This document shows, in pieces, positions 17,171 to 24,621 of a stretch of 64,000 nt of DNA. Location of the stretch: the NCBI GenBank assembly GCA_015179125.1, contig WHVA01000031.1, positions 186,001 through 250,000 on the forward strand, read 5' to 3'. Both the position numbers and the translations under genes were made by a program. Numbering within the stretch: the first letter of the stretch is position 1; each line of letters starts with the position of its first letter. This DNA comes from Gautieria morchelliformis (taxonomy: Eukaryota; Basidiomycota; Agaricomycetes; Gomphales; Gomphaceae). The notes below the pieces were generated by a model. That model ran no database searches. It was not told where the DNA came from and saw only the letters and a program-made list of their open reading frames with translations.

Positions 17171-18311
17171 TCTTCAGTGATTTGCCTCATATTATTCAGA
17201 TCTCAGGCCAGTGACATTCAGTTGCTGCATCTCTGAAATGTGGTGATAGAACCACGGGGTCGTAAGTGACTATCTCACGGGAACCCAGTGGTTGTCGACT
17301 CGAAATGCCTGGTTCAATCCATTGGTCTTCCGTTGTAGGATCCCTGAATACCCATGAGTCAACCCCTGAAACCAACTCATTGAAACGAAACCTTTTCCAC
17401 TGAAACCAATTCATTGAATTTTCAACGGGTTCTATTGGTATTTACACTAGCTAGTATGGTTTATATACTGAATCCTCAGTGGGTCCACCCAATAGGATTC
17501 ATTGGGTTGACTACCCACAGTGCAGAGCCGGACGAGATGTAGGCGATGTGATATATGAAACAGAGAGATGCTGACCCACTCTTCCGCAGAAGAATATGTG
17601 CGCACCATTCGGTCACAACGCCGGGGTTGTCCAAGAGCTCGCATAAACATGGGGAAGAGACATGTCACCTTGCGAAGGGCCGGGAGAGTGTGGCATCCCG
17701 TGAATCACTAGAACATGACCTCCATTGGATGAAGTGTCAGCACGACCATGAACTTCTCGTGCTGCGTTCCCGCCTCAGTCAGTCGATTTGTCGAACAGAC
17801 TCCCCTCGATCCCAGGTCCCTGCGACAGGAACGATGGAATACGTGAAGTCCGAACATGACGTCTTAGCAGGTATGATGTTGCTAAAATCGACATTCACAA
17901 TCTTGAACAAGCTCGTGAATCAGCCCATACCCATGTGGATGAACATGAATCAAAGAATTGCAACGCGAGGAACTGGACTACATATTGAACACACACGACT
18001 TGAAGCAGAGTTTGACAGGTCGACCACCAAATTTAGTCCGGGTGGCAGCAAGTAAAGCGAGAGCAAGTATGGCGCGATTCTTAGTTTCCTTGTCTCATCC
18101 GTATTTGTCGTGCTCAAACCCAGGGTAGAATGCCTTCAGGGCGAGGTTGGACGACTCGACTCGGCAGCAAATAGTTCAGAAATCAGCCATTCGTACTGGC
18201 AGACAACTAGTATGAACCAAGGTGATCATGATGAGAGAGACAGCCACTGATCCAAGGTTATATGCTCTCCCTGTCATTGTAGCGTTGCGTAACTCCCTGC
18301 GAGTTATACCC
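17171..18311. other. No recognisable gene
   Basis: A 166-codon open frame (17555-18055, plus) has no motif and no clear codon bias. 17365-17435 holds two copies of CTGAAACCAA(C/T)TCATTGAA. Nothing else is supportable between the R1 repeat flank and the WD40 region. Confidence 0.4.
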
Positions 18312-20037
18312 TCATGAGTACTGTGTATGAAGGGGTGAGAGGGGCGCACATAATCTCACGGAGCCGTTAAAGTAGCTTGTGGCGAGCATGCCCCCCGTCG
18401 GGCTCAGGTCGACACATTCAACTGCATATGCGTGCATGCATGCACACATGGCGCAATGAGAAATGAGCTACACGCCTGCATGCATACGCGCTGGGACATA
18501 CCGAAACCCCTATTGCCATGAAGTACAAGCTGCGCTTCCCCCGGGCGCAGGTCCCAGAACCGCACGGATCGGTCATACGAACCGGATACGACCCACTGGT
18601 TGTCGTGTGACACTGCGACGGAGCACACTCCATGCTACATTCACAATCATGAGCATCAAGACCCATAAGTTGGCAATATTTACGAGTTGCGAACGCATGC
18701 AACAGAAAGCGACGAGAGAGGCAAACAGACTGTCCTGTTACATACCGTATGTCCGATAAACTCAACCACGCACGCACACACACCTTCGTTCTGTCCGCTC
18801 TCCTCCTTTGCTGCCGAGCCCGGGTCTTCTTCATCCACTTCATACGACTGCTTCAACGGCGCCCCTCGTTGAGCACTCCTTAGCAATAGTCCCAAATCCC
18901 AACGCTTCATCTCCCCGTGCATGCCTCCGCCAATGAGGCTGTTTCCGTCAGGAGTGAAAGCCAGGCTGGGAATCCAGTCGCTGTGGCCCACGAGGCGGTC
19001 GAGGAGCTGCCCTGTTTGGATGTCCCAGAGGCGCACGGTGGTGTCGTGATAGCCGGCAGCGACGAGATGCCCATCAGGGGAGATGGCGACAGAGCTTACG
19101 CCCTCATCTACCTACGTATATGAATCACAACCACACAAAACAGCATATCACCATCAACATCACCCACAAGCGCAACTCCCATCAGCATGCGACACACGAC
19201 CATAAGCGACAAGAACACTCACATCAGAAGATGCCACTGGCATTATCGACAGCCTCTTGTGCTTCCTGGTCTCCATGTCCCAGATGCACACGGTGTTGTC
19301 CTCAGAGCCGGACACGATGAGACTGCCATCGGGCGAAAAATCGAAGGATGAGAGCCGCCGGCGGTGACCCTCAAAAATGGTCAGGACTCGGATGGGCTTG
19401 TCTGAAATCTCCCATATCTAACAGTGAAGGGCGAAGGGGATATGTGTGGGTTGAGAGGTAAGTGGGCAGTTGAAGACATAGTCCATGGATTGAGAATAGA
19501 ACGGGATCAAGGAGTAGGCCAGGAAATAAATGAAGGATTTCAGCAAATAAAATGGCGAACACGCACTCTAATGTTGTAATCCATAGCACCCGCCGCGAGG
19601 AGCTTCCCGTTGGAGCTAAAGTACACCCTGATGATCCAGAGACTGGGGTCAGCAGTGTCGTCAATGAGGATACTGGTGCAAAGGGGGTCAATGTGTATAA
19701 TCCAAGTGAAAGAAGAGGCAATTGTTCACCATGACCTTGCCCCGGTGGTTGTCTCGTATATTTCCGCGGATCCTATGCACCCAATTGCAAGGTACCTCCC
19801 GTCGGCTGAGAAGCGGACACACAATACCGGGCTGGGGGGAAATGGGAATACAGGAGTACGAGTGAGGGATAAATAAGTGCAAAACCAAGTCATCACCAGA
19901 ACCCCAAAGCTCCACCAGAACTCACCTGCGCTCACGCTCTACTAGAGTATGAAGCAAGTCCACCTCTGTTCGGCGGTGAGGCACATCATTGCTGAAGGCC
20001 ACAAACCAGCCTGCACCCTGTTGCTAATGAGGTGAGG
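18312..20037 (-). CDS. Tup1-like seven-blade WD40 propeller of the fusion gene
   Basis: Begins after the intron with QQGAGWFVAFSNDV and VDLLHTL, the conserved stretch just before the propeller in Tup1. Seven blades follow, each matching Tup1 in order: CVRFSADGRYLAIGC; YFSSNGKLLAAGAMD; FDFSPDGSLIVSGSEDNT; SSVAISPDGHLVAAG; SLAFTPDGNSLIGGG; CSVAVSHDNQWVVSGSYD; CVDLSPTGGMLATSY. All exon joins I checked keep the frame, and no stop is seen. Tup1 is the WD40 subunit of the Tup1-Cyc8 corepressor; its N-terminal Cyc8-binding helix is absent here. The charged insert after blade 5 (about 18800-18870) is also where Tup1 has a variable loop. Confidence 0.85.
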
Positions 20038-20090
20038 TGGAAAGATGGGGAAAGAGTTAGCAATGGGCCAGCAACATACCAACTTCAACT

Positions 20091-21237
20091 CTGGCCGCAG
20101 CATGTTTGGGTTCTTGTTAGGGACTCCCACCGCCGTCTCCAGGAGCAATGAGACAAGCTTATCATGGCCACCCACTACTGCTGCCTGCAGTGCACCACCA
20201 TACACTCCGCCTTGAGCATTGACGTCGGCACCCATGTCTAGGAGGACCTGAACAATTGTATCATGTCCATTATATGCTGCTGCCTGCAGTGCACTGCCAA
20301 ACTCTCCTCCATGAGCATGCAGATCTGCACCCTTCTCCAAGAACAGCCGAACAATCATCTCATGGCCCTGTAATGCCGCTGCCTGCAGTGGACTCCCATA
20401 CTTTCCCCCATGAGCATTCACCTCCGCACCTTTCTCTAGGAGCAGCAGTACAGTTGTATCATGACCATTGTATGCTGCCGTCTGCAGTGCACTCCCATAA
20501 TGTCTGTTTTGGGCATTCACATCTGCGTCCTTCTCTAGGAGCAGCAGTACAGTCATATCATGACCATCATATGCTGCCGCCTGCAGTGCACTCCTATAAT
20601 GTCCTCCTTGGGCATTGACATCTGCACCCTTCTCTAGGAGCAGCAGTACAGTCGTATCATGACCATTCTGTGCTGCTGCCTGGAATGCACTCCCATGGGA
20701 TCCTCCTTGGGCATTCACATCTGCACCCTTCTCTAGCAGCAGTAGTACAGTTGTATCATGACCATTATATGCTGCTGCCTGCAGCGCGCTGCCATAATAT
20801 CCTCCTTGAGCATTCACTTCTGCACCCTTTTCTAGGAGCAGCAGTACAGTTGTATCATGTCCATTATGTGCTGCTGCCTGCAGCACACTCCCATAATATC
20901 CTCCTTGGGCATTCACATCTGCACCCTTCTCTAGGAGCAGCAGTATAGTTGTATCATGACCATTACCTGCTGCTGTATGTAATGCATACCCACCCCCATC
21001 CCATCCTCCTTGGGCATTCACATCTGCACCCTTCTCTAGGAGTAGCAGGACAGTCGTATCATGACCATTATATGCAGCTGCTGCCAGTGCACTCCCATGC
21101 TCTCCTCCTTGTGCATTCACATCTGCACCCTTCTCTAGGAGCAGCTCAATAATAGTATCATGACCACATACTGCTGCAACCTGCAGTGGAGTGCAATGGA
21201 TCCCTCCTGGTGCATCAGCTTCCAGCCCATTCAACAA
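20091..21237 (-). CDS. Eleven ankyrin repeats of the NLR gene
   Basis: Eleven 33-residue repeats of the pattern GGxYGSALQAAAYNGHDTT-VLLLLEKGADVNAQ follow one another in one open frame. Units 4-8 are almost identical at DNA level, which points to recent unequal exchange or gene conversion, as known for repeat domains of fungal NWD/NLR genes. The open frame starts directly after the TGA at 21241, so it is in frame with the NACHT exon apart from that stop. At the 3' end the frame continues with NKNPNMLRPELKL to a GTATGT donor. Confidence 0.93.
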
Positions 21238-21240
21238 ACT

Positions 21241-23627
21241 TCAGCACACCCCTTCCAGTTGAGCTTTGGCCGCATAATAGAGAGGTGAGCCCCTGCCCTC
21301 TGGCCATTCCATGTATTGACGATAAAGCCTCAGCCAGTTGACATAAATAGCACCCATAGGTTCCAGGAGGACCATGCCTAGTTCCTGTAGATCATCACCA
21401 CCAGCTGGATCCAACCGAGCATGAAACATCCAGTACTTGGCGGCATAACGTGATAGTGGATATGACCTGATTGTACTCTGGGTTACAATGTTATCCTGGT
21501 CAAACTGCAGCAGGTATGCCAGACATGTCTTCGCAATGAACACATGTGCCATCTGTTCATTAAAATGAAAATATGAAATCTGGGCATCGCTATTCCCCAG
21601 GTGTTCCGAAATCAGATATTCTTTGACGGAGAAGTGTGCCAATCTAATCTCTCCTGCTTCAATGTTATCGTTCGTCTCCTTGATGTCCGATAATTTTGCA
21701 TCTGGCACAGAAATGGTCACCAAACTGGAACATATGCAGAGGATATCTTGTGGATCCCAAAGCCGCCGCCGCCGGTCAAATAGAGGTCCACCTTTTGCAT
21801 CAGCATCAGTAGCGATCACATCCACAGCCTCGGCCGGTGATAATGTGCCGACAAGGAATGCCAGCCACTGAAGCAAGCTCAGAGCATCCCGTCTATACTC
21901 CTCATCGATGGCTTCCAGAATTCGATCGTACGTCTCATGTAGCGTCTTTGGTAGACGCGTGAGTGCTCTCAAAAGTGCAGCCGGAGAACGGCACTTCCGC
22001 AGTGCATCCAGCTGACAAACAACCCATCGAAACCTTCCCTTTCTGTCAGTAACTACATCAGAGCAGGTGAAATGAACACTTACATTCCATGCGCGCCCTT
22101 CATCAAGGTAGTCTCGACCATTTTCTTCTCATCTGCCGAGCACATGCTAAACTCGATGTCCTCAATAAGTGTCCTGGAAATATGGACTTGGATGTCACGG
22201 TCGACAAGACTCTCGTTCATGGACACCTCATGTGACACCAAGCCCTTCAGCACCCTCTCAATGTCACCCTCTTTTCGACTCGTTGCCAGCAGGTGTAATC
22301 CATCCACCCTCCAAGCATGGATCTCTTTGACCACTTTCAGAAACCTGGATCGCTCCGGACACTCGTCAAGCGCATCAAGCACGATATATACCGCACGGAA
22401 GTGCCCAATAGCGAACTTCAACGTGGATAGCAGCTGTCCATGAGCCGGGGATCGGTTTGCAGTAACACTCTCGGAGCATAGGGTATCCAGGGTGTTGGGG
22501 ATGGCTGTACATTGTGCGGATAATTGTTTGAGCAGAGATCGAAGGACGGCGTCTGACAGAGTGTCCTTGCTGCTGCTGTTAAAATCGAAGTAGAAAAATG
22601 CGATTGCCAGAGAGGGGTCGGAACGGCAATGAAGTGAGAGTTCTTCGATGACGGTTGAGCTTAACGCAGTCACACCTTAGTGTGGTAGGGAAGACAAAGA
22701 CAGCTGTGATGCACATACCATAATATAGTTTTCCCAGCGCCAGCTGCGGCAGTCTATCAGCGATTACAACTTCAGCAGCTTAAAAGAGCGCGCACGTATA
22801 CCGTGAAGCCAAAGGAAGGAGTGAGGGGCCTCTCGCCATTCCTGGAAGCGTTCCCCCTCCACAAACCATGAACCGGTTGTCTCCTGTCGCACGCTACGAG
22901 CATTTCTATGCTTCGATTCGTGATCAGGAGCTGCCAGCCATTTATAGATCTTGTGACGATGTTCTTCTACATGAAAAAGCCGTCTAAATCAGTGTGTCTC
23001 CTTAAGGGGAACTGGCGATATGGGACGTACGCAATTTCGTCTGTTCCATAGCCTCACCGAGCTCAGCAGTCCGTGCCTGCAACACTTCGACCCCGCTATC
23101 TATCTTCAATGTCAAGCGTCTATCTGGTTGATCAGCATGGAGGCGAAGGTAGCGGGTGCAACATACGTCTGATCTACGTCCATGACCGTAGTCAACGAGT
23201 CCTGGAGCTTGCCTAGCTTGTTGAGAGTCTTGCGCACCTCGCTCTCCTTTAGCGGCCAGATCAACGCTTCCACGCGGCCTTTGCGTCCAAGGTCTCTTTC
23301 CAGGGCCGCATTGAGACTATCCAGGTCGCCACGGCAACGAAGAAGTAGCTCATCCAAAGCCGGTAGTCGGGAGGATGCTGTCTCATCGTCTTCTACTAGT
23401 CGACGAATAGTTTCGAGCACTTTTTGGAGTCCAAACAGCTGATCAAGGATCCTTTTCTTGTCCCTAGATGCTTCCTGACGCTACTCCCATAGTTGTAGCA
23501 TGCATTGATAGTCATTCCAGTGAGCAGGAGAACGGCGATGACACTCGCTGATTAGAGTGGTTAGCACCCTACCAACGGTTCTGATAGGTTGGCGGGACTT
23601 ACCTGCTAATCCCAGAGCTGCAGCCAT
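21241..23627 (-). pseudogene. SesA-NACHT half of the NLR gene
   Basis: Exon 1 23603-23627; intron to 23548; exon 2 from 23547 carries the SesA domain (ASVIAVLLLTG, then after a 1-base frame change DKKRILDQLFGLQKVLETI, RVEALIWPLKESEVRKTL, DVDQT). Next comes the linker typical of fungal NACHT proteins (HKIYKWLAAPDHESKH, TTGSWFVEGERFQEW, SFLWLHG), the P-loop remnant AGAGKTIL split by an intron near 22740, AIAFFYFDFNS, the Walker B motif VYIVLDALDECPE (about 22385) and a winged-helix region up to FSVKEYLISEHL. The intron at about 22042-22080 has consensus borders. The stop TGA at 21241 follows QLEGVC, just before the first ankyrin repeat. Confidence 0.85.
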
Positions 23628-23967: not shown

Positions 23968-24621
23968 CACGAAGCCCCGCGAAGCACTCCTCCTCCTCCG
24001 TTTTAAAAGGCCAAAGGAGACTTGCATAAGCATTCAGAAGCAAAGGGCTTTGATAGCGTTAACGTTTTCGGGCTTGGCGTTGTGTGTGTTCAAGACCCAT
24101 GCCCTGTGCTGGTAAAGGGTCAGAGCCTCTCCGTACATGTTCTTTCCTTGACGGTCTTTCCCTTCACACAGGTACGAGTCGCTTCCGACGGCAACAAAGG
24201 AACGGTACGTCTTGAGGCTCTTGGTTATGGCCTCCATGTACTCGCTCCTTTAAGACGCAAGCATCTCCACAACAGCAGCACATACCTCACCTCAAAGTTT
24301 GAGGTATGTGCTGCTGTCGTGGAGATGCTTGCGTCTCAAAGGAGCGAGTACATGGAGGCCATAACCAAGAGCCTCAAGACGTACCGTTCCTTTGTTGCCG
24401 TCGGAAGCGACTCGTACCTGTGTGAAGGGAAAGACCGTCAAGGAAAGAACATGTATGGAGAGGCTCTGACCCTTTACCAGCACAGGGCATGGGTCTTGAA
24501 CACACACAACGCCAAGCCCGAAAACGTTAACGCTATCAAAGCCCTTTGCTTCTGAATGCTTATGCAAGTCTCCTTTGGCCTTTTAAAACGGAGGAGGAGG
24601 AGTGCTTCGCGGGGCTTCGTG
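23968..24621. repeat. Long inverted repeat, 321-bp arms, 12-bp loop
   Basis: 23968-24288 and 24301-24621 are near-perfect reverse complements, with few mismatches (for example at 24254 and 24274). The loop is ACCTCAAAGTTT. A transcript through it would fold into a long hairpin. Both arms carry the same 3' end of an ORF (next entry), so the structure is a head-to-head duplication. High arm identity implies recent origin or conversion between arms. Confidence 0.95.
24301..24555 (+). pseudogene. C-terminal ORF fragment in the inverted repeat
   Basis: Open frame ending YMEAITKSLKTYRSF ... KPENVNAIKALCF and stop; the mirrored copy occupies 24034-24288 on the minus strand. Predicted mainly helical, with GC-rich third positions. 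No start codon is left because the arm begins inside the gene. After the stop comes CCTTTTAAAACGGAGG (about 24584-24599). I do not recognise it; a nucleocapsid of a negative-strand mycovirus is possible from context only. Confidence 0.4.

What the first reader, a model, noticed from the sequence alone, without database searches (positions are those of the whole stretch)
18312..23627. NLR gene fused to a complete Tup1-type WD40 propeller
The ankyrin exon of a SesA-NACHT-ankyrin gene reads, without a stop, through NKNPNMLRPELKL to a GTATGT donor; the next exon continues in phase 0 with the stretch that precedes the propeller in Tup1, and seven blades follow in Tup1 order with frame-keeping introns. 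No separate start or Tup1 N-terminal (Cyc8-binding) helix is seen. A transcriptional corepressor propeller on an NLR would be an integrated domain, comparable with decoys in plant NLRs, or a new output domain. Domain identities are established families; the fusion and the decoy idea are inference.
Basis: partly seen in the sequence, partly recalled or inferred. Interest (0 to 1): 0.87.

Follow-up and report, generated by a model that had tools for sequence, protein, structure and literature searches.

The report
Immune receptor with captured Tup1 propeller
In the fungus Gautieria, a family of immune-receptor-type genes carries at its end a copy of the binding disc of the gene repressor Tup1, and that disc varies most on its binding face, which suggests it became a recognition domain; the copy in this window is a damaged member of the family.

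Summary
The fusion is real, but the window copy is damaged and one of many. The minus-strand gene (23627-18274, 15 exons) encodes an N-terminal helical domain, NACHT, ankyrin repeats and a seven-blade Tup1-type propeller joined in phase. It carries a 1-bp frameshift (~23472) and an in-frame TGA (21243-21241). Three paralogues in the same genome (Gautieria morchelliformis) are open throughout (1299-1432 aa); one is annotated in NCBI as a single protein. Of 36 strong Tup1-type propeller matches, 28 follow an ankyrin tail. Introns sit where the genome's own Tup1 has them, and 20 family propellers form one clade (100/100) beside that Tup1: one DNA-level capture, then expansion. In 15 intact propellers, 28 top-face positions equivalent to those under diversifying selection in HET-D/HET-E take 9.1 nonsynonymous changes per site against 3.1 elsewhere; a codon model gives omega 1.58 (p=0.007) against 0.48. 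Six non-NLR Tup1-type propellers show no such excess. Best reading: a diversifying recognition domain, not a conserved decoy or corepressor output. No RNA, population or functional data were available; other family members are annotated as pieces, several partial.

The parts
18274..23627 (-). whole gene, 15 exons; broken copy of a NACHT-ankyrin-Tup1 propeller gene
   Evidence: exon joins at GT/AG that restore conserved motifs and match three intact paralogues
23603..23627 (-). exon 1 (start ATG)
23167..23547 (-). exon 2, N-terminal helical domain (weak PF17111); holds the frameshift
   Evidence: sub-threshold Pfam match in two paralogues
23471..23473 (-). 1-bp deletion (frameshift) relative to three paralogues
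   Evidence: alignment
23031..23119 (-). exon 3, linker
22796..22966 (-). exon 4, linker and start of NACHT, up to LHGIP
22719..22743 (-). exon 5, P-loop GAGKTIL
   Evidence: PF24883 NPHP3_N in the intact paralogue C444b (whole protein 5.6e-41)
22084..22659 (-). exon 6, NACHT
20080..22033 (-). exon 7, end of NACHT part, ankyrin repeats, first Tup1 residues (LRPELKL)
21241..21243 (-). in-frame TGA between NACHT part and ankyrin repeats; open in three paralogues
20018..20079 (-). phase-0 junction intron; the own Tup1 gene has an intron at the same place (PSELKKE|GSDW, read by eye from the frames)
19926..20017 (-). exon 8, Tup1 pre-propeller stretch and start of blade 1
19736..19831 (-). exon 9, blade 1
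19567..19672 (-). exon 10, blade 2
19223..19417 (-). exon 11, end of blade 2 and blade 3
18746..19111 (-). exon 12, blades 4 and 5 with the insert before blade 6 that own Tup1 also has
18502..18634 (-). exon 13, blade 6
18350..18421 (-). exon 14, blade 7
18274..18296 (-). exon 15, C-terminus SYATLQ and stop
   Evidence: annotated paralogue P0002

Best explanation
The locus is a degenerate member of a receptor family of Gautieria morchelliformis built from an N-terminal helical domain, a NACHT switch, ankyrin repeats and a propeller. The propeller was captured once, as genomic DNA with introns, from the fungus's own Tup1 gene; the fusion gene then multiplied. The Tup1 N-terminal helix was left behind. 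The propeller was freed from corepressor work and became part of the ligand-sensing end: its scaffold is kept, while the residues on its top face diversify, as in the WD domains of the allorecognition NLRs HET-D/HET-E. Most likely a ligand (a non-self or altered-self protein) binds the ankyrin-propeller end, relieves the NACHT switch, and the N-terminal domain signals, perhaps to cell death. SHOWN by sequence: architecture, reading frames, one origin, family size, where change is concentrated. INFERRED: expression as one protein, ligand binding, activation, output.
For: Three paralogues open over the whole architecture with the same exon joins. NCBI record P0002 (JB92DRAFT_3008675, 1322 aa) annotates one of them as one protein with the same junction. 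28 of 36 strong propeller matches follow an ankyrin tail. Propeller introns at the places of own Tup1's. 20 family propellers one clade 100/100, next to own Tup1. HET-type positions 7, 9, 25, 27 in 15 intact copies: 9.07 nonsynonymous changes per site, bottom loops 2.63, all non-hot 3.08; MWU p 1.2e-9 (against bottom loops) and 3e-11 (against the rest); same pattern in three close copies (1.04 against 0.23) and in the other 12 (7.35 against 2.60); six non-NLR Tup1-type propellers show none (1.71 hot, 2.05 bottom, 1.66 rest distinct residues). Codon model: omega 1.58 at the 28 sites (LR 7.33, p 0.0068), 0.48 elsewhere, 0.43 in bottom loops.
Against: No transcript was seen. Other family members in NCBI are annotated as NACHT-ankyrin pieces, several 'partial', ending before the propeller. 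The window copy is broken, so it is no functional example itself. Counting dN/dS at the hot sites is only about 1 (1.06 in 15 copies, 0.99 in the three close ones, 1.17 in the other 12). With a free synonymous rate, only position 25 is significant alone (omega 3.62, p 4.7e-4; positions 7, 9 and 27 at 1.15-1.26, not significant), and the estimated synonymous rate at hot sites is 1.29 times that elsewhere, so gene conversion or mutation bias may add to the signal. Part of the family is decaying: 7 of 24 full-length family propeller models carry stops or frameshifts. Ligand and output are unknown.
Confidence: 0.73

Rival explanations
1. Integrated decoy: the propeller imitates Tup1 so that an effector or viral protein that attacks Tup1 is trapped and triggers the NLR.
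For: The domain is copied from the genome's own Tup1; a decoy from the kinase CHK2 has been proposed for Sordariales NLRs (PMC12258605, sections 14 and 20 read).
Against: The top face is what diverges most within the family, while six non-NLR Tup1-type propellers show no excess change there. A decoy could still act through other surfaces.
Confidence: 0.1
2. Relaxed constraint: a redundant, partly decaying multigene family in which the propeller no longer binds anything and its surface drifts.
For: Window copy has two lesions; 7 of 24 full-length family propeller models carry stops or frameshifts; propeller dN/dS 0.51-0.60 is higher than NACHT 0.21-0.27 among the three intact copies; counting dN/dS at the hot sites is near 1.
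Against: Drift should affect exposed bottom loops as much as the top face, but bottom loops are at omega 0.43 and the top face at 1.58; lengths of propeller exons 8-13 differ between the four close copies only by multiples of three.
Confidence: 0.1
3. Two adjacent genes: a NACHT-ankyrin gene and a separate Tup1-type gene that starts in the 'intron'.
For: Several NCBI gene models of the family end within the ankyrin repeats, some marked partial; no RNA evidence seen.
Against: Ankyrin tails read open into a phase-0 intron of 62-83 bp in 27 family models and three, with little room for an end and a promoter (lengths; in two of the 27, C278:116274 and C636, the model starts inside the tail or linker); P0002 is annotated as one protein; the ankyrin exon itself ends with Tup1-like residues PELKL.
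Confidence: 0.04
4. Output domain: the propeller recruits the Tup1-type repression machinery when the NLR is active.
For: Tup1 propeller homology over its full length.
Against: Tup_N absent at the locus; top face not conserved; in NLRs the effector domain is described as N-terminal and the sensor as C-terminal (PMC10197012, passages).
Confidence: 0.03

Closest known systems
HET-E / HET-D / HNWD NLRs of Podospora (PMC1805685 and PMC2873952, passages read)
   Same: NACHT NLRs with a C-terminal WD propeller whose codons 7, 9, 25, 27, modelled on the top face, are under diversifying selection; the same positions vary here.
   Different: Theirs are near-identical tandem repeats that evolve in concert. 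Here it is one non-repetitive seven-blade Tup1-order propeller with introns, behind ankyrin repeats, and the N-terminal domain is not shown to be HET.
CHK2-kinase NLRs of Sordariales, proposed integrated decoys (PMC12258605, sections 14 and 20 read)
   Same: Apparently a single integration of a conserved cellular protein's domain at the C-terminus of NACHT NLRs.
   Different: Nine NLRs in Chaetomiaceae and Podosporaceae, a kinase, no surface analysis in those sections; here 28 ankyrin-linked copies among 36 strong matches in one genome, and diversification on the binding face.
NACHT-ankyrin-SPRY NLRs of Sordariales, and B30.2 NLRs of fish (same sections)
   Same: An extra binding domain behind ankyrin repeats (SPRY in Sordariales), suggested to be a sensor.
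   Different: SPRY/B30.2 is not described there as a copy of the own species' corepressor; here the donor gene is still in the genome.
Tup1 corepressor (own gene at C419:46-50 kb; PDB 1erj Tup1 chain matched at 1.1e-63, eleventh in the list behind repeat-rich and designed WD40 chains, WDR5 and dynein tail)
   Same: Full propeller, intron positions, linker.
   Different: No Tup_N; joined to NACHT-ankyrin; top face diversified.

Membership tests
Fungal NACHT-type NLR | NACHT/NPHP3_N with intact P-loop | tested here: met
   PF24883 5.6e-41 in C444b; GIPGAGKTIL in the window copy too
Fungal NACHT-type NLR | N-terminal effector domain of a known class | tested here: inconclusive
   PF17111 at 25.2 and 25.0 bits, cut-off 27.2; SesA not among the families listed up to E 1
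Fungal NACHT-type NLR | C-terminal superstructure-forming repeats | tested here: met
   Ank_2 7e-34, WD40 2.6e-61 in C444b
Tup1 corepressor | Tup1-type seven-blade propeller | tested here: met
   59.9% to own Tup1, shared introns, tree
Tup1 corepressor | Tup_N helix (Cyc8 binding, tetramer; recalled) | tested here: not met
   PF08581 matches only on C419, C1048, C393
HET-D/HET-E-type WD recognition NLR | diversifying selection at WD positions 7, 9, 25, 27 | tested here: met
   codon model omega 1.58, p 0.0068 for the 28 sites together; of the four positions only 25 is significant alone
HET-D/HET-E-type WD recognition NLR | near-identical tandem WD repeats with concerted evolution | tested here: not met
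   the seven blades differ and keep Tup1 order and introns
HET-D/HET-E-type WD recognition NLR | controls vegetative incompatibility | not testable with these tools
   needs strains and crosses
Integrated decoy | domain copied from a cellular protein and fused to an NLR | tested here: met
Integrated decoy | keeps the surface of the imitated protein | tested here: not met
   top face is the fastest-changing part of the propeller core
Integrated decoy | bound by an effector that targets the original protein | not testable with these tools
   no effector known here

The most novel reading that the evidence does not exclude
The Tup1 propeller is a recurrent raw material for receptors in mushrooms. 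It was captured once into NACHT-ankyrin NLRs in Gautieria and, separately, into kinase genes in Marasmius (three proteins, two propellers each, joined at the same linker), and in both cases its top face was then diversified, giving a repertoire of single-propeller recognition domains derived from a corepressor.
Probability: 0.35. Interest if true: 0.86.

Novelty: new variant of a known kind. Interest (0 to 1): 0.74.

Why it matters
If true, a fungal NLR family turned a conserved transcriptional corepressor domain into a diversifying receptor surface, by one traceable gene fusion with the donor gene still present. It gives a clear route by which new sensor domains arise, an alternative to the decoy model for integrated domains in fungi, and a set of 17 lesion-free family propellers (the window's among them) whose variable residues can be tested directly. 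Annotated models of most listed members stop before the propeller, so such architectures may be under-counted.

Tried and rejected
REJECTED: one isolated fusion (a family was found); the upstream junction acceptor (missing in two paralogues); the C-terminus at 18312 (a further exon exists); retroposed propeller (introns shared with Tup1); SesA label.

LED NOWHERE: protein searches were swamped by repeat-rich WD40 proteins, mostly bacterial, and do not show whether other fungi have the fusion. In search 42 the 120 best of 366 hits were listed; read by eye, only P0002 shows NACHT, ankyrin and propeller families together. The genome tool holds no relatives of this genome, so other Gomphales were not searched. 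A motif screen of C1048 and C393 showed no clear propeller. Position-wise fits for positions 7, 9 and 27 did not leave their starting values; all fits were redone. No fold was predicted: the spliced proteins lie outside the stated input rules or, for P0002, over the length limit.

DROPPED ROWS: selection tests use 15 of the 17 lesion-free full-length family propellers; the window copy was left out because its gene is broken, C653 because its junction was misaligned. The top-face positions were taken from recalled WD40 hot-spot rules after the alignment had been seen; those follow the positions published for HET-D/HET-E, mapped here by motif. In one search branch lengths, kappa and scale were fixed from the non-hot sites.
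Full report
WHAT IS THERE. The gene lies on the minus strand, 23627 to 18274, in 15 exons. Exon joins restore conserved motifs such as LHGIPGAGKTILCSTVIEEL. The order is an N-terminal helical domain (only a weak, sub-threshold PF17111 match in two paralogues), NACHT/NPHP3_N and ankyrin repeats (Pfam on paralogue C444b), the Tup1 linker (LRPELKL) and a full seven-blade propeller.

THE WINDOW COPY IS BROKEN. Against three paralogues it has a 1-bp frameshift near 23472 and an in-frame TGA at 21243-21241. Intact copies exist. Read alone, ankyrin plus propeller is one open frame of 747 residues downstream of the TGA. An assembly error cannot be excluded for either lesion.

IT IS A FAMILY. The genome is that of Gautieria morchelliformis: P0002, named JB92DRAFT_3008675 of that species, lies on a 108,880-bp contig, the length of C444, and by eye matches paralogue C444a apart from one intron kept in the annotation and the C-terminal end. 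C352 (1432 aa), C444a (1305 aa) and C444b (1299 aa) are open over all exons in the first, 14-exon model; their propeller ends are open with the last exon too. A 122-aa propeller exon finds 36 strong matches in the genome (E up to 1.7e-28). Of these 36, 28 have an ankyrin tail aligned in one model with the propeller (25, three; in C338, C708 and C882 the aligner needed extra introns in the tail, in C653 it missed the junction intron, and some copies carry lesions). Two show linker and junction only (C278:116274, C636), two are the Tup1 gene and its neighbour (C419), two gave partial models (C394:93264, C204:189900), and two were not fetched (C204:411839, C394:70174). One more ankyrin-linked copy, C484:84030, lies outside the 36. 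Of 37 places modelled, 27 gave a full propeller, three of them on C419; of the 24 family ones, 17 are lesion-free. A more distant member, C134:141957, has the N-terminal, NACHT and ankyrin parts too, with one frameshift in its N-terminal domain.

ORIGIN. The genome's own Tup1, with Tup_N, is on C419. Its propeller introns at model positions 71/2, 103/2, 139/0, 204/0, 325/0, 370/1 and 394/1 recur: among the 37 models, exactly these positions occur in 27, 24, 32, 16, 35, 27 and 28 (the C419 copies are counted in). The intron near 204 is placed at 200-206 in other models, in seven of them in phase 2. One Tup1 intron (178/0) is found only in the two C419 copies. Tup1 also has an intron where the fusion has its junction intron (PSELKKE|GSDW against ELKL|GAGW); this was read by eye from the frames, not modelled. 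If so, the break lies inside the Tup1 exon before it. The family shares the SKHVPQRR-type stretch with own Tup1, where the two other mushroom Tup1-type records seen have NPKVKRVLDV or similar. In the tree, 20 family propellers are one clade (100/100), own Tup1 and its tandem copy are next to it, and the other Tup1-type propellers, Marasmius included, are outside (100/100). One capture as genomic DNA, then multiplication, is the simplest history.

WHERE IT CHANGES. Among the three intact close copies, dN/dS is 0.21-0.27 in NACHT and 0.51-0.60 in the propeller. In HET-D/HET-E, codons 7, 9, 25 and 27 of the WD repeat, modelled on the top of the propeller, are under diversifying selection (PMC1805685, passages; repeated in PMC2873952, passages). 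At the 28 equivalent sites of 15 intact family propellers there are 9.07 nonsynonymous changes per site, against 2.63 in 39 bottom-loop sites and 3.16 in 232 others; counting dN/dS is 1.06 against 0.43 for all non-hot sites. The three close copies C352, C444a, C444b show the same excess (1.04 against 0.23 per site; dN/dS 0.99 against 0.38), and so do the other 12 (7.35 against 2.60; 1.17 against 0.45). Six non-NLR Tup1-type propellers show no excess (mean distinct residues 1.71 hot, 2.05 bottom, 1.66 rest). A codon model gives omega 0.48 for 271 non-hot sites, 0.43 for bottom loops and 1.58 for the 28 hot sites (test against 1: p 0.0068 with a free synonymous rate; omega 2.06, p 3e-20 with the rate of the other sites). 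Position 25 alone gives 3.62 (p 4.7e-4); positions 7, 9 and 27 are not significant alone with a free rate.

HOW IT MOST LIKELY WORKS. The ankyrin-propeller end senses a ligand with the propeller's top face, NACHT switches, and the N-terminal domain signals. The sensing role rests on the pattern of change; ligand, switch and output are inference from known NLRs. A conserved decoy or a corepressor output domain would be expected to keep the Tup1 face, and it is not kept.

WHAT IS KNOWN. Of five paper searches with results, those for fungal NLRs and Tup1 (20 of 54, 8 of 8 and 3 of 3 papers listed) showed no paper titled or summarised as a Tup1-propeller NLR; only listings were seen except for the passages and sections cited. 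Fungal NLRs with extra domains are known, including an apparently single-origin CHK2 kinase proposed as a decoy, and ankyrin-SPRY ends proposed as sensors (PMC12258605, sections 14 and 20). [quoted passage not shown]

LIMITS. No transcripts, isolates or sister species were available. Other family members are annotated in NCBI as NACHT-ankyrin pieces, several partial. Gene conversion among paralogues could raise apparent change at some sites.

Noticed in passing
window 23968-24621: Near-perfect foldback: inverted repeat with 322-nt arms, 99% complementary, 10-nt spacer, just upstream of the gene's start; assembly artefact or foldback element.
   Followed up: no
P0128, P0131, P0132 (Marasmius proteins): Kinase (PF00069) fused to two Tup1-type propellers, joined at the same linker (PPEFKKEGADW and close variants); top-face positions vary more (2.64 distinct residues) than bottom loops (1.67), p 3.6e-5 in six propellers.
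   Followed up: partly
C444b, residues 1-690: Outside Gautieria the best-scoring named relatives of the NACHT-ankyrin part in the listed 120 are ascomycetes (about 38% identity, for example Trichoglossum); a few basidiomycetes (Pholiota, Athelia) score lower. Old transfer or sampling.
   Followed up: no
C419:33.6-50.9 kb: Own Tup1 has two Tup1-like neighbours on the same strand (C419:40 kb, no Tup_N match; C419:35 kb, diverged, with a stop and a frameshift in the model).
   Followed up: partly
genome G000: Very many WD40 frames (150 scored, all over the Pfam cut-off, of 3357 first-look candidates), many in open frames of 600-1200 aa.
   Followed up: no
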